Below are positions 33,401 through 47,670 of a DNA stretch of 50,561 nt, piece by piece (the stretch's first letter is position 1; each line of letters opens with the position of its first letter). The position numbers were made by a program, and so were the translations under genes. Under the pieces are notes generated by a model. The model ran no database searches. It was not told the DNA's origin and was given only the letters and a program-made list of their open reading frames with translations. The stretch covers positions 1 to 50,561 of the forward strand of contig NZ_ML636815.1 in the NCBI RefSeq assembly GCF_006476605.1, read 5' to 3'. Source of the DNA: Brucella gallinifaecis (lineage in GTDB: Bacteria > Pseudomonadota > Alphaproteobacteria > Rhizobiales > Rhizobiaceae).

Positions 33401-34837
33401 ATGGATGAACGGCTTAAAAGCCATGAAGTGCCTTTGGCCGTTGATCTTGACGGAACGCTGGTTGCAACAGATCTGTTGTGGGAAAGCGTTTTTGTGTTGC
33501 TGAAGAAAAATCCCTTATATCTGTTTTGTTTGCCTGTCTGGTTACTTTCCGGCAAGGCTAATTTGAAACTTCAGATTGCCAAACGTATTGTACTGGATGC
33601 TTCACTGCTTCCATATCGGCAGGATTTTCTGGAATATTTGCGTCTTCAACATAAAAACGGGCGCAGACTTGTGCTGGCGACAGCGGCTGCAGAACCTTTG
33701 GCGCAGTCCGTTGCTGATGAACTTGGGCTGTTTGAAACCGTTTTTGCAACGCGTGAGCGGACTAATCTTTCGTCTCGATTAAAAGCACAGGCTCTGACTG
33801 AACATTATGGAGCCAAAGGCTTTGACTATGCCGGCAATGATCGTGCTGATCTTGCGGTTTTTGCTGCTGCACGCAAGGCGATTGTGGTGGCGCCTGATCG
33901 TGCTGCATCGCGTTTTCAAAAGGCTAGTGAAAGTCATTTATTTGAGCAGCCTGTTACTGGAATTAAGCCATATCTGAAAATGCTTCGTGTCCATCAATGG
34001 CTTAAAAATCTGCTTGTGTTTGTTCCGGCTATTCTGGCGCATACCATTTTTCTGCCAGATGATTTAATTGCTTCAATTCTTGCCTTTATCGCTTTTTCCT
34101 CAGCTGCATCTGCGATCTATATTCTCAACGATATAATCGATCTTCCGCTTGACCGACAGCATGTCAAAAAGAAATTGCGGCCTTTTGCAAGCGGCACATT
34201 GAGTATTCCATTTGGCCTTAAAATATCGGTTTTGCTTTTGTTGATTGCAGGAGTATTATGCTTTTTTCTGCCACTGGAGTTCAGTTTTGTTATCGGTCTT
34301 TATCTGATTGCAACGACGGCTTATTCGCTGGCATTGAAGCGTATGTTGCTGGTCGATGTGCTCTGTCTGGCAGCGCTCTACACCTTGCGTCTGTTGGGTG
34401 GTACGGCGGCGACTGAAATTCCTCCATCATTCTGGCTGATGGCTTTTGCGATGTTCTTTTTCCTGTCACTTGCGCTCGTCAAACGCTATGTGGAGCTTGA
34501 TAATTCAATGGTGACTGAAAAAGACCGTATTGCTGGGCGGGGGTACAGACCTGAAGATATTGGTATTGTTGGTCAGAGTGGTGTTGCATCCGGCTTTACG
34601 GCTGTGGTGGTTTTGGCACTTTATATCAACAGCGCTGCTGTTCAGCAGCTCTATACATACCCTTGGCTTGTTTGGCCGCTTGTGCCGATCGTTCTTTATA
34701 TCGTTATGCGTGTCTGGATTCTCGCACATCGCAAAGAGGTGGATGACGATCCGGTTGTCTTTCTTGCTCATGACTGGCGCAGTCAGGTGGTGATAGCAAT
34801 TGGTGTGGTCTTGCTGTTCGTAGCCGGAATAAGGTGA
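33401..34837 (+). CDS. HAD phosphatase-UbiA prenyltransferase fusion (decaprenyl-phosphate phosphoribosyltransferase type)
   Basis: A 478-residue two-domain protein. Residues 1-190 form a HAD hydrolase with AVDLDGTL (Asp15 and Asp17, the phosphatase DxD form), the Thr motif LATAAAEP and GNDRAD (145-150). Residues 195-478 are a UbiA prenyltransferase with about eight or nine helices and the Asp-rich motif NDIIDLPLDR (243-252). In mycobacteria the UbiA relative Rv3806c joins phosphoribose to decaprenyl phosphate, and a separate phosphatase removes the 5-phosphate. Here both steps may be in one protein; this is inference from the fusion and from the DprE1-like neighbour. The stop shares one base with the next start. 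Confidence 0.88.
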   Translation: MDERLKSHEVPLAVDLDGTLVATDLLWESVFVLLKKNPLYLFCLPVWLLSGKANLKLQIAKRIVLDASLLPYRQDFLEYLRLQHKNGRRLVLATAAAEPLAQSVADELGLFETVFATRERTNLSSRLKAQALTEHYGAKGFDYAGNDRADLAVFAAARKAIVVAPDRAASRFQKASESHLFEQPVTGIKPYLKMLRVHQWLKNLLVFVPAILAHTIFLPDDLIASILAFIAFSSAASAIYILNDIIDLPLDRQHVKKKLRPFASGTLSIPFGLKISVLLLLIAGVLCFFLPLEFSFVIGLYLIATTAYSLALKRMLLVDVLCLAALYTLRLLGGTAATEIPPSFWLMAFAMFFFLSLALVKRYVELDNSMVTEKDRIAGRGYRPEDIGIVGQSGVASGFTAVVVLALYINSAAVQQLYTYPWLVWPLVPIVLYIVMRVWILAHRKEVDDDPVVFLAHDWRSQVVIAIGVVLLFVAGIR

Positions 34838-36141
34838 TGGAACAGTTTTTCGACAGTTTTGGGCGCATTGACCGCAGAAAACGAAGTTCGATCGTTTTCG
34901 ATGAGGTGTTTTCCAGACTGGAAGGGCCGGAAAGCTTGCTTGCTTTCGGTAATGGACGCTCTTACGGCGACAGTTGCCATAATGATGCAGGTTTGCTTGT
35001 ACCTATGCAGGCGCATAACCGCATTGTGAGTTTTGATCCGCATACCGGAGTTCTGGAAGCGGAGAGCGGTGTGCTATTGAACGAGATTATCCAGAAGGTT
35101 GCCCAATATGGTTATTTTCTGCCGGTAACACCAGGTACGTGCTTTGTGACGCTTGGTGGTGCAATCGCCAATGATGTGCACGGCAAGAACCACCATGTGC
35201 GCGGAACATTTGGCGCCCATGTCGAGAGCCTGGAGTTGCTTCGCTCTGATGGTGTGCATTATCATTGTTCCAGTTCTGAAAATGCTGAGCTATTCGCGGC
35301 AACAATTGGCGGTATGGGTCTGACAGGGCTTATCCTCAATGCTCGTATTCGTCTGATGCCGGTTGGTTCTTTGGATGTCGAGGAACGCATCACATCTTTT
35401 GAGAACCTGTCTGAATATTTTGAGATCGCGGAAAGATCAGATCGCGACAATGAATATGCCGTCGCATGGGTTGATCAGTTGGCACGCGGACGCTCGGAAG
35501 GGCGTGGTGTTTTGATTACCGGTAATCATGCCATCAATGGCAATCGTAGCGCAAGCAGTGGAACAGCACGGCTGGGTGTACCCTTTGATCTTCCGTTTTC
35601 TATGCTCAACAAGCTGAGCCTGACTGCGTTCAACACCCTTTATTTTCATGGCAAAAGACGCAGGCAGGAAGCGCATCTGACAGGTTTTTCGAGCTTTTTC
35701 TATCCGCTGGATGGACTGCGTAACTGGAACCGTTTCTATGGCCCATCCGGGCTGTATCAGCATCAAAGCGTCATAGCTTTTGATATGGCTGAGAAGACAA
35801 TTCCGGCAATGCTGGCAGCAAGTCGTGATGCCGGACAATCCTCTTTCCTGACAGTTCTCAAGCGTTTCGGCAATCTGCACTCTCCCGGGCTGCTGTCATT
35901 TCCAAAGCCCGGCTATACGCTGACAATGGATTTCCCCAATAAAGGACGCAAGACGCTGGATCTGCTTGATCAGCTTGACAGTCTGACAATTGAGGCTGGC
36001 GGGCGCGTCAATCCATATAAGGACCAGCGCATGAGTTCTGAAACATTCAAGGCTGGCTTTCCGGAATGGCAGCAACTTGAAGACATGCGCGATACACGGT
36101 TCTGCTCTGATTTCTGGCGGCGTACCGCATTAAAAAATTAA
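34837..36141 (+). CDS. DprE1-like FAD-dependent oxidase (decaprenylphosphoryl-ribose 2'-oxidase family)
   Basis: Resembles mycobacterial DprE1, which oxidises C2 of polyprenyl-phosphoryl-ribose as the first half of ribose to arabinose epimerisation. The 434 residues have the FAD-binding blocks FGNGRSYGDS (38-46), VTPGTCFVTLGGAIANDVHG and KNHH (117-120, His matching the FAD-contact His of DprE1). YHFHGKRRRQ-type, FFYPLDGLRNWNRFYGPSG and the catalytic-site Lys (Lys395, in NPYKDQR) follow. The position of the mycobacterial benzothiazinone-reactive Cys387 is Thr363 (GYTLTMDFP). There are no membrane helices. The start ATG overlaps the upstream stop (TGATG). Confidence 0.88.
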   Translation: MEQFFDSFGRIDRRKRSSIVFDEVFSRLEGPESLLAFGNGRSYGDSCHNDAGLLVPMQAHNRIVSFDPHTGVLEAESGVLLNEIIQKVAQYGYFLPVTPGTCFVTLGGAIANDVHGKNHHVRGTFGAHVESLELLRSDGVHYHCSSSENAELFAATIGGMGLTGLILNARIRLMPVGSLDVEERITSFENLSEYFEIAERSDRDNEYAVAWVDQLARGRSEGRGVLITGNHAINGNRSASSGTARLGVPFDLPFSMLNKLSLTAFNTLYFHGKRRRQEAHLTGFSSFFYPLDGLRNWNRFYGPSGLYQHQSVIAFDMAEKTIPAMLAASRDAGQSSFLTVLKRFGNLHSPGLLSFPKPGYTLTMDFPNKGRKTLDLLDQLDSLTIEAGGRVNPYKDQRMSSETFKAGFPEWQQLEDMRDTRFCSDFWRRTALKN

Positions 36142-36153
36142 ACCACGGGACAG

Positions 36154-36576
36154 ATGATGAAATATATCCCATTCATTCTTTTCACGGTCATGACCAATGC
36201 AGCCGCACAGTTGCTGCTCAAATATGGCATGATGTCATTCAGCAATGCCAGCTATACAGCGGATACGCTGATTTACCGGATATTTCAGATTGTCTTTAAT
36301 CCGTGGGTTTTCGCTGGTCTGACCATGTTCGTAATTTCCATGGCATCCCATATGTATGTGCTTTCAAAGGTTGATTTGTCTTTTGCCTATCCTTTTTTGA
36401 GCCTTGCTTATGTCGCCGTGGCAGTTTTCGCATGGCTTTTATTCAAGGAAGAGTTGGGCGCTTACAAGATTGCGGGTATCGCTTTCATCTGCATTGGAAC
36501 AGTGCTGATTGCACAGAGCGGCAAAACAACCAATGCCGAACAGAGTGCAGCGGTCCATGACCGCTCAGCACTATAA
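36154..36576 (+). CDS. Small multidrug resistance/ArnE-like four-helix membrane protein
   Basis: A 140-residue inner-membrane protein with four hydrophobic helices of the EmrE/ArnE/ArnF fold. The conserved helix 3 stretch DLSFAYPFLSLAYVAVAVFAW resembles ArnE/ArnF and EamA proteins. ArnE and ArnF form a flippase for undecaprenyl-phosphate-aminoarabinose. Here, directly after a DprE1-like gene, a role in flipping the lipid-linked pentose is the simplest inference. The C-terminus (about 25 residues) is polar. It starts 12 bases after the preceding stop. Confidence 0.8.
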   Translation: MMKYIPFILFTVMTNAAAQLLLKYGMMSFSNASYTADTLIYRIFQIVFNPWVFAGLTMFVISMASHMYVLSKVDLSFAYPFLSLAYVAVAVFAWLLFKEELGAYKIAGIAFICIGTVLIAQSGKTTNAEQSAAVHDRSAL

Positions 36577-36591
36577 TCATTTACTTTAATG

Positions 36592-36626
36592 CTATCCCGC
36601 AAAGCGTTTCACACTTGTCGGGATAG
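36592..36626. repeat. Rhizobiales-type intergenic palindrome
   Basis: CTATCCCG (36592-36599) pairs with CGGGATAG (36619-36626), with a loop containing GCGTTTCACACTTGTC. The layout resembles, from memory, a palindromic element common between genes in Brucella, Agrobacterium and Rhizobium. It splits the five-gene row between the SMR-like and SDR genes and could modulate read-through. Confidence 0.55.
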
Positions 36627-36655
36627 ATTCTAATTTTAAAAGTCGGGGCAGAATT

Positions 36656-37639
36656 ATGAGACATATTATTTTCGGCGGTGATGGCTTTGTGGGACGTTAT
36701 CTGGCTCCCATGCTTCTCGCTGATGGTCATGAAGTGATCGTGGCGGATATTGTGAAAAGCGATCTCGAGCATTATGGCCAGGTAACTTTCGTGCAAACGG
36801 ATGTGACCGACCCGCAGGCCATTCGCAAGCTCGGCCTGCGTGCCGATGATATGGTCTATAATCTCTCGGCCAAGATGCTTTCGCCGCTTCAGGTGCGGGC
36901 CAAGCGTCATGATTTCTTCTTTCCGGTCAATTATTACGGCACAGAAAACATCATCAAGGCTATGGACGAGGCCGGTGCAAAGCGTCTTGTGCATTTCACC
37001 ACTGATATGGTGTATGGTCACACCTATGTCTGGCCGCAGAAGGAAGATCACCCGTGCAACCCGCTCGGTGAATATGGACTGTCAAAGCTCAAGACCGAGG
37101 AACTGGCTGCCGAATGGCGCAATCACGGCATGAATATTACTCTGTTTCGTCCGCGCCTGATTATCGGTCCGGGACGCCTTGGTATTTTGGAAAAACTGTT
37201 CAAGCTGATCGATAACAATTTGCCGGTACCGATGATCGGGTCCGGGAAAAACCCTTATCAATTCATTTCTGTTTTTGATTGTGCATCTGCATGCTATGCA
37301 GCTTTCAAGGCAGGCGTGCCGAACGAGGTATATAATCTCGGCTCGCTCAACCCGCCGCCAGTACGAAAATTGCTCGGTGATCTGGTCAAGCATGCTGGAT
37401 CAAAATCCATTCTGGTGCCGACACCAGCCTGGGCGGTCAAGCGCACACTGGATTTTCTCGACTGGCTTAACAAGCCTTTGATGGACCCGGAGCAATATCT
37501 GATTGCCGATGAAATGTGTGTTCTCGATGTGTCGAAGGGCGAGCGAGAACTTGGCTGGGTACCGCAATATCGCGATGAGGATATGCTGATTGCAGCCTAT
37601 AGCGAATATCATAAAAAGCTTGCATCGAAGGAAGCATGA
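36656..37639 (+). CDS. Extended SDR (NAD-dependent epimerase/dehydratase family) protein
   Basis: A 327-residue Rossmann protein. The NAD motif is GGDGFVGRYL near residue 6 (GxxGxxG form). The catalytic Ser/Thr-Tyr-Lys set is visible as HFTTDMVYG and, downstream, YGLSKLKTEEL. The substrate domain has FRPRLIIGPGRLG and FISVFDCASACYAA. The family acts on nucleotide- or lipid-linked sugars. In this row it could reduce the 2-keto intermediate made by the DprE1-like oxidase, as DprE2 does in mycobacteria, although DprE2 is a classical rather than an extended SDR. The exact reaction is open. The aminotransferase gene follows after nine bases. Confidence 0.85.
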   Translation: MRHIIFGGDGFVGRYLAPMLLADGHEVIVADIVKSDLEHYGQVTFVQTDVTDPQAIRKLGLRADDMVYNLSAKMLSPLQVRAKRHDFFFPVNYYGTENIIKAMDEAGAKRLVHFTTDMVYGHTYVWPQKEDHPCNPLGEYGLSKLKTEELAAEWRNHGMNITLFRPRLIIGPGRLGILEKLFKLIDNNLPVPMIGSGKNPYQFISVFDCASACYAAFKAGVPNEVYNLGSLNPPPVRKLLGDLVKHAGSKSILVPTPAWAVKRTLDFLDWLNKPLMDPEQYLIADEMCVLDVSKGERELGWVPQYRDEDMLIAAYSEYHKKLASKEA

Positions 37640-37648
37640 GGACAGGCC

Positions 37649-39073
37649 ATGACCAATCAAATCCTGACAAACACCACGCCTAAGCCGAAGCTTCTGACAG
37701 TAGAAGACGCCAAGGCACTTGATTTGCCACGTATGACCGAGCTGTTCACCAGCCATCTTAACCCGGGTCAGTTACACTTCATGAAGCTGCTCGGTTTCCA
37801 CAAGGTGAAAATTGAACGTGCCGAGGGCATGTATTATTTTGACCAGGATGGTCGCAAGATATTAGATTTCTTTGGTGGCTTCGGCTCGCTGGCACTGGGG
37901 CATAATCATCCGCGTATTCTTGAAGCGCGTCGCAAGTTTCAGGAAGAAATGCGGCATGAAATCGCCATTGCCTTCATGTCGCAATATGCGGCAGCCCTTG
38001 CCTATGACATCGCAGCCTGTTCGCCGGGCGATCTTGATATGGTGTTTTTAGGCTCATCCGGTTCGGAAGCGATGGAAGCGGCAATCAAGGTTGCAGAACG
38101 TGCCGCAGGCCCGAAAAAACCGAAGATCGTCTATGCTGAAAACTCGTTCCATGGAAAGACCAAAGGCGTGTTATCGATCACCGATGGCGGGCTTTATCGT
38201 GGCGAGTTCAAACTGGTTGATCACACGGTGCGCGTCCCGTTTGGTGATATTGATGCTATTGAAAATGCTTTCCGTGCAGACCCGGAAATTGGTGTCATTG
38301 TGCTGGAAACCGTTCAGGGTGGCGGCGGCATCATTCAGGCCGATATGGCATTCTGGCAGAAACTTCGCCAGCTTTGTGATCAGTATGGCGTGATCTGGGT
38401 TGCCGATGAAGTACAATGCGGTTTTGGCCGCACTGGAAAATTCTATGCCTTTGAACATTATGGCGTTATTCCCGACGTCACCGCTTTGGCCAAGTCACTT
38501 GGCGGCGGCAAGACGGCAATGGCCGCAATGATTGCCAGGCGCGACGTCTATATGAAAGCTTACGGTACACCGAAGACGGCAATGATTCATGCAATGGCGA
38601 CTTTTGGTGGTATTGGTGAAGCCTGTATCACCTCCATTGAAACGATCAACATACTTTACGACGAGCATTTGATCGATAACTCAGCGGAAACGGGCGACTA
38701 TCTGCTCGAACGTTTGAATGAGTTGCATGCGCGTTACCCGAAACTCATCAAAGAAGTGCGCGGCAAAGGCATGATGGTCGGGCTGGAATTCCACGACTTC
38801 TCCAATGCCATGCCAATCGTGCTGCGCCCTGTGCTGGCTATGCTTGATGACAAGCTGAAAGGCTCTTTGCCTGGCTTTATCGGCAGTCACCTTTTACGCG
38901 ATCACGGTGTTCTTGTGGCTTTCACGGAATATAATCGTAATGTTATCCGGCTAGAGCCGCCATTGATTTGTGGCCGCGTGCATGTTGATGCGTTTATCAA
39001 CGCTCTTGACGAAGTTCTCGGACGCGGAATTGTCCGCATTGTCAAAGACTTCGTTAAAGCGCAGATCAAATAA
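37649..39073 (+). CDS. Class III PLP-dependent aminotransferase
   Basis: A 474-residue aminotransferase of fold type I, subgroup III. GSSGSEAMEAAIKVAERAAG binds the cofactor phosphate, WVADEVQCGFGRTGKF holds the ring-stacking Asp, and Lys282 in TALAKSLGGGKTAM is the Schiff-base Lys. The N-terminal 45 residues and the C-terminal region are longer than in ornithine-type members. Subgroup III enzymes move amino groups between omega-amines and aldehydes or ketones, including sugar-derived ones (HpnO in aminohopanoid synthesis is one). Placement after the oxidase and SDR suggests an amino-sugar or amino-polyol product; the substrate is unknown. It ends at a strong terminator. Confidence 0.9.
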   Translation: MTNQILTNTTPKPKLLTVEDAKALDLPRMTELFTSHLNPGQLHFMKLLGFHKVKIERAEGMYYFDQDGRKILDFFGGFGSLALGHNHPRILEARRKFQEEMRHEIAIAFMSQYAAALAYDIAACSPGDLDMVFLGSSGSEAMEAAIKVAERAAGPKKPKIVYAENSFHGKTKGVLSITDGGLYRGEFKLVDHTVRVPFGDIDAIENAFRADPEIGVIVLETVQGGGGIIQADMAFWQKLRQLCDQYGVIWVADEVQCGFGRTGKFYAFEHYGVIPDVTALAKSLGGGKTAMAAMIARRDVYMKAYGTPKTAMIHAMATFGGIGEACITSIETINILYDEHLIDNSAETGDYLLERLNELHARYPKLIKEVRGKGMMVGLEFHDFSNAMPIVLRPVLAMLDDKLKGSLPGFIGSHLLRDHGVLVAFTEYNRNVIRLEPPLICGRVHVDAFINALDEVLGRGIVRIVKDFVKAQIK

Positions 39074-39079
39074 TGAATA

Positions 39080-39103
39080 AAACCGGGTGATTTCACCCGG
39101 TTT
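39080..39103. terminator. Bidirectional terminator between aminotransferase and GT-C genes
   Basis: A 10-base-pair stem (39080-39089 with 39094-39103), four-base loop, flanked by A-rich and T-rich tracts. It directly adjoins the stop codon of the convergent membrane glycosyltransferase-like gene. Confidence 0.9.
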
Positions 39104-40795
39104 TTATCTGGGCAGCATATTGCGCCGCAACAGAATGTCCCAGCAAGGGGTGAGCGCAATGATATCGCGGTTTTCAAGCGCATCAGCATAGATTTTTTGC
39201 AAGGCAAGACGCGAGGATGTCATTGGGCATTTTGGGCGCAATATGCCATCTGTTGCTTCAATTGCGGCCTTGGTCTCCGGTGTCATTGCCCCCACTGTGC
39301 GAAATGGATCAGCGCCGATCTGGATTTTTCGTGTTGGCTCTCTGTTGAGAAGCCATGGAAAGGGGTCGGTGAAATCAAGCGTCATCAGCGTGTCAAGATG
39401 TATGCCTGTTTTTGCTTCAAACAAATTTAAGGCCTTGAGTGCCTCATCGGCTGAAATGAGCCAGTACATCTGATAATCAAGTTCGGAATAAAGTTGCCAG
39501 CTTGGCAATTGCCCCTGTTTGGCAAGCGCTTCATAAGGCTCTGGATAGTCGGCATAATGCTCTGGCAGAAGCTTTGCGCGATCCATGATGTCAGGTCTGG
39601 CCGAAACCTGACGCATATTCTTCAATTCGCTCACAGGTGGCTGGATATAGGTTGGTGCCACGGCAATTGCGCGTAAGGTTCTGTGTGTTACCTTGCTGAT
39701 AGTGGGAATAACACAGAAGGCAGCGAGCACTATGAAAGCGGCTTTTGATTTTCCTTCAATATGCTTGATGCGCTGATAGATCATAAGCAATACGGGCCAG
39801 AGGAAGATGAATTCCTGACTGCCGGTATTTTGAGTTTCTAAAACAATACCTCCGATAAGGGTGATCGCAAGCCATACTGATCCGCGATCAAAGAAGTGTG
39901 CTGAAGTGATATTGTGCGTCGTCTCAAACCAGAAGAGAAACAGCACAAGTATTGCTGCTGGCAATATGACGTCAAATTTACCGGAAATAACGGTGAGGAA
40001 GCGTGGTAGCAAATCGCTTTCATTCAACGATAAAAGCTGCTGAATATCGGCCATATAGGCCGAAATCATATGGTTGTTTAATTCAAGTAAAGCGAAAACT
40101 ACAAGAACGATAGCTGTTGCGATCAATATGCTCTTGATAGATATCCGCCCAGCAAGAAGAGCAGTCAAGCCAAACAGACCGCCGACCAGAAAGCCTGTAA
40201 TTTTTGTTAGAAACAGCGCGAGCATTACAGCTGCACAAAAAGCTGCAAGTTTGCGGCTATCGGTAATGAAGATCAGCCCGCAAGTCAGGACATAGAGCAG
40301 TAGCGCTGCCTGACGATTATAAATGCCAAAACCGTCAAGCCCGGGATAAGATGAATAGCTTTGCACATTGACCGGGGAGATTGCAAAAACCAGAAATGGA
40401 ATGAGAAGTGCGAAGCTTAGTGCTTTGCTTTTTCTCTCCGTTTCCAGCAGCACGATTGTCATTAGTGGCGCTGCAATTGCAAGGAAGGACCATTGCGCAA
40501 GCAGCATTGATTGCGCTTGTGGAAAAAGCTTCATGCCCCATGTGAAAAGATAATATCCCAGCGGTCCGGCAGGTGTTGAAAAATCTACTGACGGTATTTG
40601 TCCGCTATTGATGCGCTGTGCAGCATCGAGATAGAGATATGTGTCCCAATACATCGGGCCGATTGGAACGGTGAGCGTGATGCTTAACAGACCAATAAGA
40701 GCTACAAGAATGAGCAGCATCCAGAAGACAGCTCCGAACGGAAAACAGGGCTTTCCCCGCGCTGTTCCTGATGATGTCGAGGCTAAAATTTTCAA
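39104..40795 (-). CDS. Polytopic GT-C-like membrane protein, probable lipid-linked sugar transferase
   Basis: A 563-residue integral membrane protein with about ten or eleven helices over the first 370 residues and a soluble C-terminal part of about 190. After helix 1, PIGPMYWDTYLYLDAAQRI gives the acidic first extracytoplasmic loop expected for GT-C transferases using polyprenyl-phosphate sugars; STPAGPLGYYLFTWGM also fits the ArnT/GT39/GT83 layout. I could not assign a named family. It starts at TTG (40795): GGGGGAG lies about five bases upstream, which decides for this codon over an ATG at 40720. It faces the pentose-lipid row and could be its transferase; this is inference. Confidence 0.72.
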   Translation of the reverse strand: MKILASTSSGTARGKPCFPFGAVFWMLLILVALIGLLSITLTVPIGPMYWDTYLYLDAAQRINSGQIPSVDFSTPAGPLGYYLFTWGMKLFPQAQSMLLAQWSFLAIAAPLMTIVLLETERKSKALSFALLIPFLVFAISPVNVQSYSSYPGLDGFGIYNRQAALLLYVLTCGLIFITDSRKLAAFCAAVMLALFLTKITGFLVGGLFGLTALLAGRISIKSILIATAIVLVVFALLELNNHMISAYMADIQQLLSLNESDLLPRFLTVISGKFDVILPAAILVLFLFWFETTHNITSAHFFDRGSVWLAITLIGGIVLETQNTGSQEFIFLWPVLLMIYQRIKHIEGKSKAAFIVLAAFCVIPTISKVTHRTLRAIAVAPTYIQPPVSELKNMRQVSARPDIMDRAKLLPEHYADYPEPYEALAKQGQLPSWQLYSELDYQMYWLISADEALKALNLFEAKTGIHLDTLMTLDFTDPFPWLLNREPTRKIQIGADPFRTVGAMTPETKAAIEATDGILRPKCPMTSSRLALQKIYADALENRDIIALTPCWDILLRRNMLPR

Positions 40796-43185: not shown

Positions 43186-44718
43186 CTATTGGCTGGATGC
43201 AACCCCGGGCAAGCCTGTTTTGGCACTTGATGTCAAACTGCCGGTTAAGAATGCGAGATTGGCTGCGGCAATGAGTGAAGTCGCATGGGCATCGGTTTGC
43301 GCCAGTTTTGCATCAAGCAGGGCATTGTTCGTTTCATTGACCACTGTAATTGTGCCAAGCCCGTTTTTGTAGGATTCGAGCGCCGCATCAAACGCAGTTG
43401 CCGACGTTTGCACAAGAACACCGGCTGCCTTGTTGGCAGCGAGTGATGTTTTGAGCAGGTTTGATGCAAGAACAATCTCTGCAACGGCATCAAGCTGCAC
43501 CTTGCGGAAGGTTTCGGTTGCTGCATTGTGTGTGGATTCTGCATTCTTTAGCTGCGCCGCTCTAAGACCACTGTCATAGAGCGGCATTGTTGCCCCGACA
43601 AGAATGCCTGCACCAGAGGATTGATTGCCAATTGATGGCAAACTTCCTGCATCAAAGCGATTGGACGTTGAAGCAAGGGCACCAGCCACAAATACTTTTG
43701 GCATAAACTCAGCCTGGGCTACCTTGATACCCGACTTGCTGGCCTGCAATGCTGCATAGCTGGCAATTACATCAGGACGCCTCGATAATGCTGTTTCAAC
43801 GACAGACTGTGTAATGCCTTCGAACTTGCCCGGCAGTGGCTTTTTCATAGAGCTTTCAATATTGATATTGAGCATCGCATTAACGCCCATCGATGCCAGA
43901 AGCGCCTGATAGGTGTTTTGTTTCTGCCCCTGTGCCTTGACCACACGCAATTCAGCTTGTGCTACCTGTTGTCTGGCCAGAGCCAGCTCAACAGTTGTGG
44001 CACGACCTTCATTCAACTTTGCCTGAACCGCCGCAAGAACCGCCTTGCTGTTGCGTAGTGTTTGTTCTGCAATGCGTTGTCCTGCAACAGCGGCGCTATA
44101 TTCATAATAGGTGCGTGTAACATCAAAAATCACTTTCTGATGCATCGCATTGAATGTCACATTGGCGGCAAATGAGACCTGTTTTGCAGCATCGGCCAGT
44201 GCCGCACGTTGTCCAAAGTCGAAAACCAGCCATTGAAGGGCAATCGAGGGAGAAACACCTTTGAGAGTTGTATTAATATTGCGCTCACCGATCAACGGAA
44301 CATCAACCGGGGTTGATGTTTTCTGAACACCACCGATGACATTGGCAGAAATGATCGGCAGCATGGTTGCCTCGACCATTCCTACAGCAAGAGCAGCCTG
44401 CCGTGCTTTTTCCCAGGCGTTACGTGTCGTGGGATTGCTGCGCTGTGCCAGGTCGATTAACTCTGCCAGATTGTAGGAGGGGCGTGTGTCAATAGACACC
44501 GGGCTTGAGATGAGCGCCAGTTCAGGATTAGCGGGAACACTAAAATCCTTTTCGCCTGCCGCAACTTTTTTGGCCGGAGCATTCTTGTCCTGCTCTGGCT
44601 GCCATGGTTCATCAGATGCTGCAGGCGCAAGCTTCAAGGCGTCGGTAGCACAACCGCTCAGCATAGTAGCGATAATTGCAATCATGGCAACAAAGCCCGG
44701 ATTGAAAGGCCTTTTCAT
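43186..44718 (-). CDS. TolC-like outer-membrane efflux lipoprotein
   Basis: The outer-membrane channel of a tripartite exporter, 510 residues. The signal peptide ends in a lipobox (MLSGCATD), so the mature protein is probably N-acylated like the NodT/OprM group. Two OEP repeats are seen, each with long Ala/Gln-rich coiled-coil helices (for example ATTVELALARQQVAQAELRV, and its counterpart near the C-terminus). The start overlaps the FUSC stop by four bases, with TAAGGA before it. Confidence 0.9.
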   Translation of the reverse strand: MKRPFNPGFVAMIAIIATMLSGCATDALKLAPAASDEPWQPEQDKNAPAKKVAAGEKDFSVPANPELALISSPVSIDTRPSYNLAELIDLAQRSNPTTRNAWEKARQAALAVGMVEATMLPIISANVIGGVQKTSTPVDVPLIGERNINTTLKGVSPSIALQWLVFDFGQRAALADAAKQVSFAANVTFNAMHQKVIFDVTRTYYEYSAAVAGQRIAEQTLRNSKAVLAAVQAKLNEGRATTVELALARQQVAQAELRVVKAQGQKQNTYQALLASMGVNAMLNINIESSMKKPLPGKFEGITQSVVETALSRRPDVIASYAALQASKSGIKVAQAEFMPKVFVAGALASTSNRFDAGSLPSIGNQSSGAGILVGATMPLYDSGLRAAQLKNAESTHNAATETFRKVQLDAVAEIVLASNLLKTSLAANKAAGVLVQTSATAFDAALESYKNGLGTITVVNETNNALLDAKLAQTDAHATSLIAAANLAFLTGSLTSSAKTGLPGVASSQ

Positions 44719-46637
44719 TCCTTACCATCCTTCAAAAGTGCTTCAAGATGCGCAAGATGCATATCGATTTTACTCGTCTCTGTATTTCCTGCTCCTGTGG
44801 CAGTATCGGTCTGTTCTTTCGGAGCAAACTTATCCTGGCGTTGCTCAGAACCAATATGCATCGAGATTGCGTTTAATCGTTCCACAGCCCCGGGCTGAGA
44901 ATCGCAAGAGAAGTAGACTTCCTTGTTAAGCGAGGCAAGCTGATCAGCAAAGCCCCTGAATGTTTTTTCAAGCTTTTCTGAAGGTCTGAGACCAGCCGGT
45001 TCAAAAGGCAACAAATAGAAACAATAACGTATTTCTCCCAGAAGGCGTTCTGTTTCTGCTGCGGTAGAAATCAGTTTCATACGCTCATCTGGAGCAACAC
45101 TTGCAACCTTTGCTATTTTGTTGAGCACATCTGACAGATGTTGCCGGATAATTGTTGCAACGGGGGCAGGCCATATGAGTGTTGAAACAATATAGACAGC
45201 AAAATTACCGACAAGAATACCGATGATACGATCACGTGCTGTATCCATGTCGGTTGTTGGGCCAAAACCTTGTAGAACGGTTAGCGTAAAGGCAAGGCCA
45301 ATTTGTACACCACCATAGGAAATCTTTTCGCTGCCTGCAGCAACCCAGGCAGCAACGAGCGCTACAGCAAAAACCAGCACCATAAGTCCGCCAACCGATT
45401 CAAGCTGTGGCATAAGGTAAATAAGCGACGCAATACCGATCGCAGCACCAATAAGACAGCCGCCTATGCGCAAAGCCAGTTTGTGAATTGTATCGCCAGC
45501 CGTGCCCATTGATGCGACATAGCATGTGACCATTGCAGTATGGATGCCTTGCCAGTTGATCGCAGCATAGAACATATAACACAGGATAGCGGCCAAGGTC
45601 GTTTTCAGCGCGAAACGTTGATAAACTGGGTTGGTGAAGGCATCAGCGGCGAAGAAACTGTCACCTGAACCTTTATTATATTCGGTTTTTTCAATCCCTG
45701 CGATGTTGCGCAGGGACTGAACTATCCCTTTCTCTTCTTGCGTAAGAGTGGCTTCTTCCTGAATTAAAGGCGCTGGTATCGGCGTTCCTTGATCTATGGC
45801 CTCAACCATTGAATCAATTTGCTGCGCATAGTGCTGCCGGCTCTCATCCGGTATATCCTCAGGCAGCGCTGACGTTGCAAAGAGTAACTGATAGGATGCG
45901 GGAATATCAGATTGAATTTTCGCTGATTTCCTGGCCGTCGTTTGATGCAATATTTTAACAAGCATTGAGCGCTTGTTTTCATCATCATTAGCCGCAGCAA
46001 GTTTTTCCTGCAGGGAGGTCTTGGCCTCAGAATCTTTGCGTAACAATGAATTACGGGCAACTAAAAGTCGCTCGCGCAGTTCATCGCGTAACAATGACAC
46101 GCTCCAGCGGCCAAAAAACAGGCTGAATCCCGCAATAACAAACATCGGCAAAATCGCCATTTCCCATGCATAACGCAAGGCGAGAGAAATAACGCCATTT
46201 ATGGGAACTTCGTTTATTAGGCTAAGAATAAATGCAATGATCAGTGCGACAATACTGCCGCCTTCACCAAGTTTGCTTGCAGCACCAAGAAATATAAAAA
46301 CAAATGATACAATGATCATGACAAGAATGCGCAGCAATGCAGATTCAATTGTCCATTGCAGCACCGGAACCATCAGCGCTACCAATAATGTAATGGCTAT
46401 AATGGCAGCGGTTGCCACAATGGTATTTTCAGCGCCGTCGGCTTTCATTAGAAAAATAACAAGATAACAGCTGATCGCGGATTCCGGGATGTGAAACATC
46501 ATGGCAATGCCCGCCACAAGGGCACATACAGCCGCTACGCGCCATGCAGTGGCCATTCGTCCAGGAAATGGCGCGAGATCCGCTAAAGTTTCACGGATCG
46601 CATCGAATAGATTATATTTAACACTTGTCGCCATCAT
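44715..46637 (-). CDS. FUSC family inner-membrane transporter (AaeB-like)
   Basis: A 640-residue pump of the aromatic acid exporter/fusaric acid resistance family. It has two groups of about five or six helices separated by a soluble domain (roughly residues 190-330). FUSC blocks include WRVAAVCALVAGIAMMFHIP at the N-terminus and, in the second half, KTTLAAILCYMFYAAINWQG and RIGGCLIGAAIGIASLIYL. It overlaps the HlyD gene by 20 bases and the tolC-like gene by four, so the whole exporter is translationally linked. Confidence 0.92.
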   Translation of the reverse strand: MMATSVKYNLFDAIRETLADLAPFPGRMATAWRVAAVCALVAGIAMMFHIPESAISCYLVIFLMKADGAENTIVATAAIIAITLLVALMVPVLQWTIESALLRILVMIIVSFVFIFLGAASKLGEGGSIVALIIAFILSLINEVPINGVISLALRYAWEMAILPMFVIAGFSLFFGRWSVSLLRDELRERLLVARNSLLRKDSEAKTSLQEKLAAANDDENKRSMLVKILHQTTARKSAKIQSDIPASYQLLFATSALPEDIPDESRQHYAQQIDSMVEAIDQGTPIPAPLIQEEATLTQEEKGIVQSLRNIAGIEKTEYNKGSGDSFFAADAFTNPVYQRFALKTTLAAILCYMFYAAINWQGIHTAMVTCYVASMGTAGDTIHKLALRIGGCLIGAAIGIASLIYLMPQLESVGGLMVLVFAVALVAAWVAAGSEKISYGGVQIGLAFTLTVLQGFGPTTDMDTARDRIIGILVGNFAVYIVSTLIWPAPVATIIRQHLSDVLNKIAKVASVAPDERMKLISTAAETERLLGEIRYCFYLLPFEPAGLRPSEKLEKTFRGFADQLASLNKEVYFSCDSQPGAVERLNAISMHIGSEQRQDKFAPKEQTDTATGAGNTETSKIDMHLAHLEALLKDGKE

Positions 46638-47670
46638 GCACTGTCACAACGGCTGACGCTCCTGAACGCGTAAGTTCTGCTGGAGGGTTGATTAATTTTA
46701 CACGCACTGGAAAACGCTGCGCTATTCTAACCCAGTTAAGATTTTTGGGCACGTAAGGAAGATTTCGCGGAATATTGATGAGATCTTCCGACGAAACACC
46801 CCAGCCAATTCCTTCAACACGGCCTTTCACGACAATCGAACTGTTGGCTAGAATTCGTACCTGTGCACAATCTCCGACCTTGATGCCGCTCAGTTCTGTT
46901 TCGGGAAAAGTAGCAGTGGCATACCAGCTGGAAGTATCGATGAGTGTAAACAAGGATTGCCCAGGTGCAACAATCTGGCCTGTGCCATTCGTCAGCCCAA
47001 CAACACGCCCATCATGGGGTGATTTGACAACACTGTTATCGAGATTGTGCTGCGCAAGAGCAAGGGCTGCTTGCCGGGCGCGGACCAGTGCCTGCGCACT
47101 GTCGAGTGTGCCGACCAGAGTGGTCGCAGTTTTAGCTTGTTTCACCGCCTGGTTAAGACTGATCTGTGCATCATTACGCAGGGTTTTTGCATCGTCAACT
47201 TGCTGGCGTGTTACATAGCCTTTTGGACTAAGTGCCTCCAAACGCTTCAATGTTGCCTCAGCAAGATCAAGGTTCGTTCTGGCCCGAGTGACTTGCTCAT
47301 CAGCGATCAGTGCATTTTGTGATTCAGCAGCGACAGCGCGTCTTTGAGAATCAAGGGCAGCTTCAGCAATAGCAAGGTCAGCCGTTGTCTGTTCAACCAG
47401 CAGTCTGAGCGGTTCAGGGTCAATGGAAAAAAGAGTATCGCCTTTTTTGACTGCCTGATTTTCAGTGACATTGATGGAGATAATTTTACCCGGAACTGTT
47501 GCCGCTATATTTACATAATTAGCACCAATCACAGCATCGTTGGAAAGCGGGTTCTTATAGGAATCACGTAGATAAAGCCATGCCATTACAAAGGCGACAA
47601 TAATCAGAATGCCGGTTAGCGCCACGCCAACAATACTGAATTCTTTTTTGCGGTAAGCGTTGGATTCCAT
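46618..47670 (-). CDS. HlyD family periplasmic adaptor of the FUSC exporter
   Basis: The membrane-fusion subunit, 350 residues, anchored by one N-terminal helix (SIVGVALTGILIIVAFVMAW). The lipoyl-like halves are seen as GKIISINVTENQAVKKGDTL and VVKSPHDGRVVGLTNGTGQI, separated by an Ala/Gln-rich coiled-coil hairpin of about 100 residues that should meet the TolC-like tip. It lies two bases after the DUF1656 gene. Confidence 0.93.
   Translation of the reverse strand: MESNAYRKKEFSIVGVALTGILIIVAFVMAWLYLRDSYKNPLSNDAVIGANYVNIAATVPGKIISINVTENQAVKKGDTLFSIDPEPLRLLVEQTTADLAIAEAALDSQRRAVAAESQNALIADEQVTRARTNLDLAEATLKRLEALSPKGYVTRQQVDDAKTLRNDAQISLNQAVKQAKTATTLVGTLDSAQALVRARQAALALAQHNLDNSVVKSPHDGRVVGLTNGTGQIVAPGQSLFTLIDTSSWYATATFPETELSGIKVGDCAQVRILANSSIVVKGRVEGIGWGVSSEDLINIPRNLPYVPKNLNWVRIAQRFPVRVKLINPPAELTRSGASAVVTVHDGDKC

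What the first reader, a model, noticed from the sequence alone, without database searches (positions are those of the whole stretch)
33401..40795. Possible new pathway for a polyprenyl-phosphate-linked (amino)pentose
Seen: HAD-UbiA fusion, DprE1-like oxidase, ArnE-like four-helix protein, extended SDR and class III aminotransferase in a row, with a GT-C-like membrane protein convergent to them. Known: in mycobacteria UbiA (Rv3806c), DprE1 and DprE2 make decaprenyl-phosphoryl-arabinose, and Azorhizobium noe genes related to them arabinosylate Nod factors. ArnE/ArnF flip a lipid-linked aminoarabinose and GT-C enzymes transfer such sugars. Inferred: this row makes a lipid-linked pentose, perhaps aminated, flips it and attaches it to an envelope acceptor such as LPS or a glycan. 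The mix of arabinan-like and Arn-like parts with an aminotransferase is not one I recognise as described.
Basis: partly seen in the sequence, partly recalled or inferred. Interest (0 to 1): 0.8.

Follow-up and report, generated by a model that had tools for sequence, protein, structure and literature searches.

The report
Lipid-linked amino-pentose gene cassette
A conserved set of genes in soil, plant and marine relatives of Brucella looks as if it builds a pentose sugar on a membrane lipid, swaps one hydroxyl for an amino group, and attaches it outside the cell; such an amino-sugar route was not found in the papers searched.

Summary
In detail: HAD-UbiA, DprE1-like oxidase, ArnE/F-like small protein, extended SDR and class III aminotransferase (AT3) lie in a row at 33401-39073, with a GT-C-fold protein convergent at 39104-40795. 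The set is conserved: of 43 fetched loci with close AT3 (72-96% identity), 42 carry all five; the 43rd is a truncated contig. In a sample of 297 genomes of the order, 44 have DprE1: 14 with AT3, 28 with an adjacent DprE2-like reductase, 2 with neither, none with both. The DprE1 tree largely splits by partner. Two genomes have AT3 and DprE1 but no SDR; one has SDR and DprE1 but no AT3, which speaks against a strict need for AT3.

Closest known: three-component pentofuranose systems (Kelly 2024: HAD-UbiA synthase, ArnE-like flippase, GT-C, optional SDR epimerase) plus the mycobacterial DprE1 step. The difference is that AT3 stands where DprE2 should be. Best reading: DprE1 makes a 2-keto pentofuranosyl lipid, AT3 aminates it, the small protein flips it, and a GT-C enzyme transfers it. 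Chemistry, amine position and acceptor are inferred. New variant of a known kind.

The parts
33401..34837 (+). HAD-UbiA fusion: polyprenyl-phosphate phosphoribosyltransferase (UbiA part) with a HAD phosphatase domain for the 5-phosphate
   Evidence: Pfam; PRK08238 over its cut-off; NDxxDxxxDRxHxxKxxRPxAxG motif aligned to solved decaprenyl-phosphate phosphoribosyltransferase 8j8j, E 3.3e-24; NDxxDxxxD agrees in spacing with N247, D248, D251, D255 of ORF15
34834..36141 (+). DprE1-like FAD oxidase, proposed to oxidise C2 of the polyprenyl-phosphate pentofuranose
   Evidence: 4.8e-66 to solved DprE1; NCBIfam DprE1 332 bits, below the equivalog cut-off of 500; Asn-Pro-Tyr-Lys-Asp variant at the catalytic lysine
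36154..36576 (+). small ArnE/ArnF/EmrE-like protein, proposed flippase of the lipid-linked sugar
   Evidence: EamA, ArnF 54.1 and ArnE 38.4 bits, both below cut-off
36656..37639 (+). extended SDR (GalE-like), proposed epimerase of the lipid-linked pentofuranose
   Evidence: Epimerase 130.8 bits; best solved relative GalE-1 3ehe 1.4e-21; GGDGFVG and YxxxK motifs in the translation; a 45%-identical relative stands in a HAD-UbiA/small-transporter cluster without DprE1 or AT3 (L166)
37649..39073 (+). class III PLP aminotransferase (AT3), proposed to aminate the keto product of DprE1
   Evidence: Aminotran_3 293.8 bits; best solved relative 4ppm, 7.9e-75; PLP lysine motif in 57 of 57 orthologues looked at
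39079..39104 (.). 26-base perfect hairpin between the convergent ends of AT3 and the GT-C gene, terminator-like
   Evidence: pattern scan, 11 pairs, loop of 4 (17 such sites in the region against 9.2 expected); consensus match only
39104..40795 (-). GT-C-fold membrane protein, proposed transferase of the flipped sugar

Best explanation
The row is a pentofuranose-donor pathway in which an aminotransferase takes the place of the reductase DprE2. [quoted passage not shown] (2) the HAD domain removes the 5-phosphate; (3) DprE1 oxidises C2 to a ketone; (4) AT3 transaminates that ketone, giving a polyprenyl-phosphate-linked 2-amino-2-deoxy-pentofuranose; (5) the extended SDR, where present, changes a further stereocentre (C3, as ORF13 does in Citrobacter) before or after step 3; (6) the ArnE/F-like protein flips the lipid; (7) a GT-C enzyme transfers the amino-pentose to an envelope acceptor, which is not known. 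Steps 1 and 2 are well supported by homology to tested enzymes, 3 by homology, 6 and 7 by family or fold and context; 4 and 5 are inferred from gene content.
For: Five genes together in 42 of 43 loci with close AT3. In the order sample (297 genomes) all 14 AT3 genomes have DprE1 and none has the DprE2 homologue at E <= 1e-40; of the other 30 DprE1 genomes, 28 have a DprE2-like SDR next to DprE1 (15, 13). The 60-genome relatives sample agrees: 24 AT3, 4 DprE2, 28 strong DprE1, no overlap. Both types occur inside the window's genus and inside genus g74 (G154 and G323 against G210). DprE1 tree of 59 rows: 17 DprE2-partnered rows are one side of a branch (SH-aLRT 88), with the AT3-partnered rows on the other side; L118 sits next to the DprE2 group (98). 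AT3 stays tied to DprE1 through rearrangement: order or strand changed in L121, L124 and L126, two contigs in G309, and outside the order in L165 with a UbiA lacking the HAD domain. Two genomes, G196 and G218, have AT3 and DprE1 without the SDR, so there DprE1 is the only oxidase seen inside the row that could supply the carbonyl. UbiA PRPP motif conserved. GT-C folds of both alternative transferases.
Against: G078 (L127) keeps HAD-UbiA, DprE1, small transporter, SDR and GT-C but has no close AT3 (best match in the genome 4.0e-45, 33%), so the rest can exist without it. SDR is as conserved as AT3 (mean 81.5% against 80.7% in 24 loci), so it may matter more than an optional epimerase. The DprE1 motif that marks the AT3 group is not needed for AT3: L118 (G196) and L165 (G534) have AT3 with the classical motif. 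The characterised relatives of AT3 (PigE, putrescine aminotransferase) act, as recalled, on aldehydes or terminal amines, not ring ketones. G196 has a Gfo/Idh oxidoreductase and a 2-hydroxyacid dehydrogenase nearby on the other strand, so a second oxidase is not excluded; G218 is 91% complete in 290 contigs, so its lack of the SDR is less sure. No enzyme was assayed; no amino-pentose of this kind turned up in the papers searched.
Confidence: 0.58

Rival explanations
1. The extended SDR, not AT3, replaces DprE2: DprE1 and SDR together make a neutral epimer (polyprenyl-phosphate arabinofuranose or similar), and AT3 aminates at another carbon, for example an aldehyde at C5 made by an enzyme not in the row.
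For: G078 has DprE1 and SDR without AT3. SDR is present in 12 of the 14 AT3 genomes of the order sample and is equally conserved. Nearest characterised AT3 relatives are PigE and putrescine aminotransferase.
Against: G196 and G218 have DprE1 and AT3 but neither SDR (E <= 1e-60) nor DprE2 (E <= 1e-40). Relatives of the SDR occur without DprE1: L166 beside HAD-UbiA and a small transporter, L171 beside a large protein that matches none of the row's proteins. No dedicated C5 oxidase is in the cassette.
Confidence: 0.2
2. A plain three-component pentofuranose system with an unusual epimerase pair; AT3 acts on something that does not become part of the sugar (amino-acid or polyamine metabolism) and is only linked.
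For: HAD-UbiA, small transporter, GT-C and SDR match the described three-component layout. AT3 is similar to general metabolic aminotransferases. G078 does without AT3.
Against: AT3 and DprE2 co-occur in none of the 44 DprE1 genomes; the DprE1 tree largely follows the partner; AT3 remains with DprE1 after rearrangement and outside the order.
Confidence: 0.1
3. The cassette makes a 3-amino-3-deoxy (or other non-C2) pentofuranose: the SDR oxidises C3, AT3 aminates there, and DprE1 acts only as half of an epimerisation.
For: The GalE-like epimerase ORF13 turns ribose into xylose on the same kind of substrate, a change at C3.
Against: Two AT3 genomes have no such SDR; epimerases of this type normally do not release the keto intermediate (recalled).
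Confidence: 0.1

Closest known systems
Three-component pentofuranose side-chain systems (Citrobacter youngae O1/O2 ORF15, ORF14, ORF12, with ORF13 epimerase in O2; Kelly et al. 2024, PMC11127046)
   Same: HAD-UbiA fusion making polyprenyl-phosphate ribofuranose from PRPP, small EmrE/ArnE-like transporter, GT-C transferase, GalE-like SDR.
   Different: The window adds a DprE1-like oxidase and a class III aminotransferase; the word aminotransferase does not occur in that paper's main text (supplements not seen). Whether the window GT-C belongs to GT136, and whether its SDR is close to ORF13, was not tested.
Mycobacterial decaprenyl-phosphate arabinose pathway (Rv3806c, Rv3807c, DprE1, DprE2)
   Same: UbiA phosphoribosyltransferase and DprE1 oxidase; GT-C fold like AftA.
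   Different: No DprE2; HAD phosphatase fused to UbiA; aminotransferase and extended SDR present; DprE1 score under the NCBIfam equivalog cut-off; Tyr instead of Ala before the catalytic Lys.
Azorhizobium noeCHOP (Nod factor arabinosylation)
   Same: Genes related to the mycobacterial arabinose pathway in a rhizobial relative (PMC2443382, passages seen).
   Different: The passages name no aminotransferase in noeCHOP; sequences were not compared here.
Arn pathway (ArnB, ArnE/F, ArnT; L-Ara4N on lipid A)
   Same: Amino-pentose on undecaprenyl phosphate, ArnE/F-like transporter, GT-C transferase with ArnT as the best Foldseek match.
   Different: In Arn the amino sugar is made on UDP before lipid linkage by a different aminotransferase family (recalled); here the sugar would be a furanose made on the lipid from PRPP.

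Membership tests
Three-component pentofuranose system (Kelly 2024) | HAD-UbiA polyprenyl-phosphate phosphoribosyltransferase with the NDxxDxxxD motif and a HAD DxD | tested here: met
   Motif aligned to 8j8j and compared by eye with the residues of ORF15 named in the paper; DLDGT in the translation; activity not tested
Three-component pentofuranose system (Kelly 2024) | small ArnE/EmrE-like transporter | tested here: met
   EamA over its cut-off; ArnF and ArnE matches under their cut-offs; transport not testable
Three-component pentofuranose system (Kelly 2024) | GT-C transferase of family GT136 | tested here: inconclusive
   GT-C fold supported; GT136 membership was not compared
Three-component pentofuranose system (Kelly 2024) | transfers a pentofuranose to a polysaccharide | not testable with these tools
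   needs chemistry
Mycobacterial-type DPA pathway | DprE1 oxidase | tested here: inconclusive
   Homologous at 4.8e-66 but 332 bits against the 500-bit equivalog cut-off; the DprE1 of a DprE2-bearing relative also stays under it (363.2 bits)
Mycobacterial-type DPA pathway | DprE2 reductase | tested here: not met
   No match in the window's genome at E <= 1e-30 or 1e-40, with a rhizobial DprE2 homologue as query
Arn (L-Ara4N) pathway | ArnE/ArnF flippase over the curated cut-off | tested here: not met
   54.1 of 99 bits for ArnF, 38.4 of 92 for ArnE
PigE aminotransferase | score over NCBIfam PigE cut-off | tested here: not met
   350.1 bits against 850, C-terminal part of the model only
GT-C glycosyltransferase fold | fold match to solved GT-C enzymes | tested here: met

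The most novel reading that the evidence does not exclude
DprE1's 2-keto product, until now known only as an intermediate that DprE2 reduces to arabinose, is here captured by a dedicated aminotransferase, giving a polyprenyl-phosphate-linked 2-amino-2-deoxy-pentofuranose: an amino-furanose donor made on the lipid carrier and used in the envelopes of many Hyphomicrobiales.
Probability: 0.5. Interest if true: 0.78.

Novelty: new variant of a known kind. Interest (0 to 1): 0.64.

Why it matters
If true, the epimerase pair DprE1/DprE2, whose oxidase is the target of antituberculosis benzothiazinones, has a natural variant in which the oxidase feeds an aminotransferase. It would add an amino-pentofuranose to the known lipid-linked sugars, predict a cationic sugar in the envelopes of Rhizobium, Devosia, Shinella, Roseibium and relatives that carry the cassette, and give a genomic marker for it. 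The prediction is directly testable by lipid and glycan mass spectrometry.

Tried and rejected
Hopanoid side-chain synthesis was considered because of a weak HpnA hit to the SDR (63.9 bits against a 367.65 cut-off) and set aside, since UbiA and DprE1 accompany the SDR in 42 of 43 loci. PigE-type pigment synthesis was set aside: only the aminotransferase part matches, far below cut-off. The distant AT3 relatives (14 loci, L077-L090, 27 to 34% identity) had no HAD-UbiA, DprE1 or small-transporter match beside them and were left out of the counts.

Led nowhere: DNA search of the region against plasmids (one 53-base match); HAD-UbiA against phages (no match at 1e-15); plasmid searches with SDR and AT3 (Neorhizobium for both, Azospirillum for the SDR only; the Neorhizobium record has no gene table there); promoter scan (12 found, 10.2 expected). 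The protein database searches listed only the best 120 of thousands of hits, all close relatives. Literature: searches listed no paper that I recognised as describing DprE1 with an aminotransferase or an amino-pentofuranose donor; the library holds open-licence papers only and listings were capped, so this is weak evidence of absence. PMC11127046: abstract and outline, passages, and sections 7, 11 and 12 read; its supplements, with further gene clusters, could not be read. PMC9045290 and PMC2443382: passages only. All other papers: search listings only.

Analysis faults: row L030 was cut on the wrong strand and is meaningless; it was not used. In one search sixteen loci were dropped before the tree (chiefly near copies, and L132), L046 (broken DprE1) was never in the set, and L165 and L167-L170, fetched later, are not in it. 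ORFs were called by a simple script, so starts are rough and the greedy list missed some genes (among them the alternative GT-C gene of L065); counts given come from the six-frame searches. DprE2 was sought with one rhizobial query, so distant DprE2s outside the fetched loci could be missed.
Full report
Observation. HAD and UbiA domains are in one protein, which NCBIfam places in PRK08238 at 639.7 bits, over its cut-off. The second protein's nine best solved relatives are all DprE1. The third scores to ArnF and ArnE, both under their cut-offs. The SDR and the class III aminotransferase (AT3 below) are clear. The first two genes overlap, the gaps after DprE1 and after the SDR are about ten bases and that before the SDR about eighty, so an operon is likely (inference). 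A perfect 11-pair hairpin lies between AT3 and the convergent gene.

Source.

Conservation. A scan of one genome per species with AT3 gave 57 loci. The 43 with 72 to 96% identity are from Brucella/Ochrobactrum, Falsochrobactrum, Rhizobium, Agrobacterium, Neorhizobium, Shinella, Devosia, Mesorhizobium, Phyllobacterium, Aquamicrobium, Consotaella, Roseibium/Labrenzia and unnamed relatives. All five genes are present in 42 of 43; the exception, L069, is a contig that starts inside AT3. In L046 and L052 several of the genes are split into pieces but count as present. The 14 remaining loci (L077-L090, 27 to 34% identity) do not have the set. Flanking genes differ between groups, also between two groups of Brucella. 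In 24 loci outside Brucella and Falsochrobactrum, mean identity to the window is 80.7% for AT3, 81.5% for SDR, 70.2% for the small protein, 61.3% for DprE1, 60.1% for HAD-UbiA, and 55.5% for the GT-C protein in the 14 that have it.

AT3 in place of DprE2. In the 60-genome relatives sample (window's genome included) 28 have a strong DprE1, 24 AT3 and 4 a DprE2 homologue; the last two sets do not overlap and together make up the 28. Of the 24, G001 has a broken DprE1 and G006 a stop inside AT3. In a sample of 297 genomes of the order, 44 have DprE1 (E <= 1e-40), 14 AT3 (E <= 1e-100) and 15 DprE2 (E <= 1e-40); all AT3 and DprE2 genomes are among the 44. The remaining 15 were all fetched: 13 have a DprE2-like SDR beside DprE1 (115 to 141 bits), G241 has a DprE1 alone, and G078 has HAD-UbiA, DprE1, small protein, SDR and GT-C without AT3. 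So 14 AT3, 28 DprE2, 2 neither, none both; with independent genomes the chance of no overlap would be 1e-9, but genomes are related, so this number overstates. The two samples share some genomes. Both types occur within the window's genus and within g74.

DprE1 largely follows the partner. In a tree of 59 DprE1 proteins the 17 DprE2-partnered ones are one side of a branch (SH-aLRT 88); the AT3-partnered ones lie on the other side, with L118 (G196) next to the DprE2 group (98). Around the catalytic lysine (Lys418 of the tuberculosis enzyme, recalled) 54 of the 56 DprE1s from AT3 genomes that were looked at read Asn-x-Tyr-Lys-Asp; the exceptions are L118 (Tyr-Pro-Ala-Lys-Asp) and L165 of G534 (Tyr-Leu-Ala-Lys-Asp). 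All 22 DprE2-linked ones looked at read Tyr-x-(Ala/Ser/Thr)-Lys-Asp, as does the tuberculosis enzyme. So the motif marks the main AT3 group but AT3 can pair with a classical DprE1. L118, with AT3, no SDR and no small transporter found, may be an intermediate state. G078 and G241, without AT3, have Asn-Pro-Tyr-Lys; G241, of the same genus as two AT3 genomes, may be a remnant.

Natural losses. AT3 without SDR: G196 and G218. SDR without AT3: G078 with DprE1, and G265, whose 45%-identical SDR stands beside HAD-UbiA and a small transporter without DprE1. The G265 layout is like that of the described xylofuranose systems. In a class-wide sample 1 of 288 genomes other than the window's has AT3: G534, outside the order, with small protein, SDR, a UbiA without HAD, and a more distant DprE1, in a different order; no DprE2 match on its 12.6-kb contig. 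So AT3 goes with DprE1 chemistry, and the SDR can go with the ribose lipid alone. This is why AT3 is read as acting on the DprE1 product and the SDR as an epimerase. G078 speaks against a strict need for AT3.

Mechanism. The first two steps rest on tested relatives: Kelly and colleagues showed that the Citrobacter HAD-UbiA fusion makes farnesyl-phosphate ribofuranose from PRPP, that N247, D248, D251 and D255 matter, and that replacing D18 of the HAD domain gave mainly the 5-phosphate product, with a little of the dephosphorylated one left. The window's UbiA keeps NDxxDxxxD and the adjoining motif of solved 8j8j. ORF13, a GalE-like SDR, changes the sugar from ribose to xylose, shown by deletion and complementation. 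DprE1 as the oxidase of the C2 epimerisation is established for mycobacteria (C2 also). Amination by AT3 at that carbon is inferred. The class III aminotransferases nearest to AT3 (PigE, putrescine aminotransferase) act on aldehydes or terminal amines as recalled, so C5 or C3 amination stays open.

Novelty. Donor synthesis, transporter, GT-C and SDR are a described kind, and candidate arabinofuranose systems with DprE1/E2 homologues are described too. DprE1 with an aminotransferase and no DprE2 was not found in the papers searched, a library of open-licence papers. Hence: new variant of a known kind, with a real chance of a new lipid-linked amino sugar.

Noticed in passing
   Followed up: partly
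L091, L092, L093, L094, L140; L141 and L142 in part: A second recurring arrangement: HAD-UbiA, DprE1, DprE2, an extended SDR of another kind and a PRK07233 FAD protein, not obviously needed for plain arabinose.
   Followed up: partly
L059, L061, L063, L065, L067, L068, L071-L073, L076: A family of about 400 residues without a Pfam match over cut-off (two members scanned) but with a GT-C-like model stands near AT3 where the window's GT-C protein is missing.
   Followed up: partly
L034-L040 against L041-L047 and L052: Within Brucella/Ochrobactrum the cassette sits between different flanking genes in two groups, and the DprE1s of the two groups do not form one supported group in the tree: possible horizontal transfer. 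Copies in L046 and L052 are broken.
   Followed up: no
   Followed up: no
L118, 9189-13133: Two LPG_synthase_TM proteins and a PMT_2 membrane protein beside a cassette in which the small transporter was not found; they may be the flippase or acceptor machinery there.
   Followed up: no
L171 (Azospirillum sp. B510 plasmid pAB510f), 5271-7966: A 45.6%-identical relative of the SDR directly after a large uncharacterised protein that by its hydrophobic stretches looks membrane-bound.
   Followed up: no
window 43186-47670: OEP, FUSC and HlyD genes in a row on the minus strand, an efflux-type operon next to a MscS channel gene.
   Followed up: no
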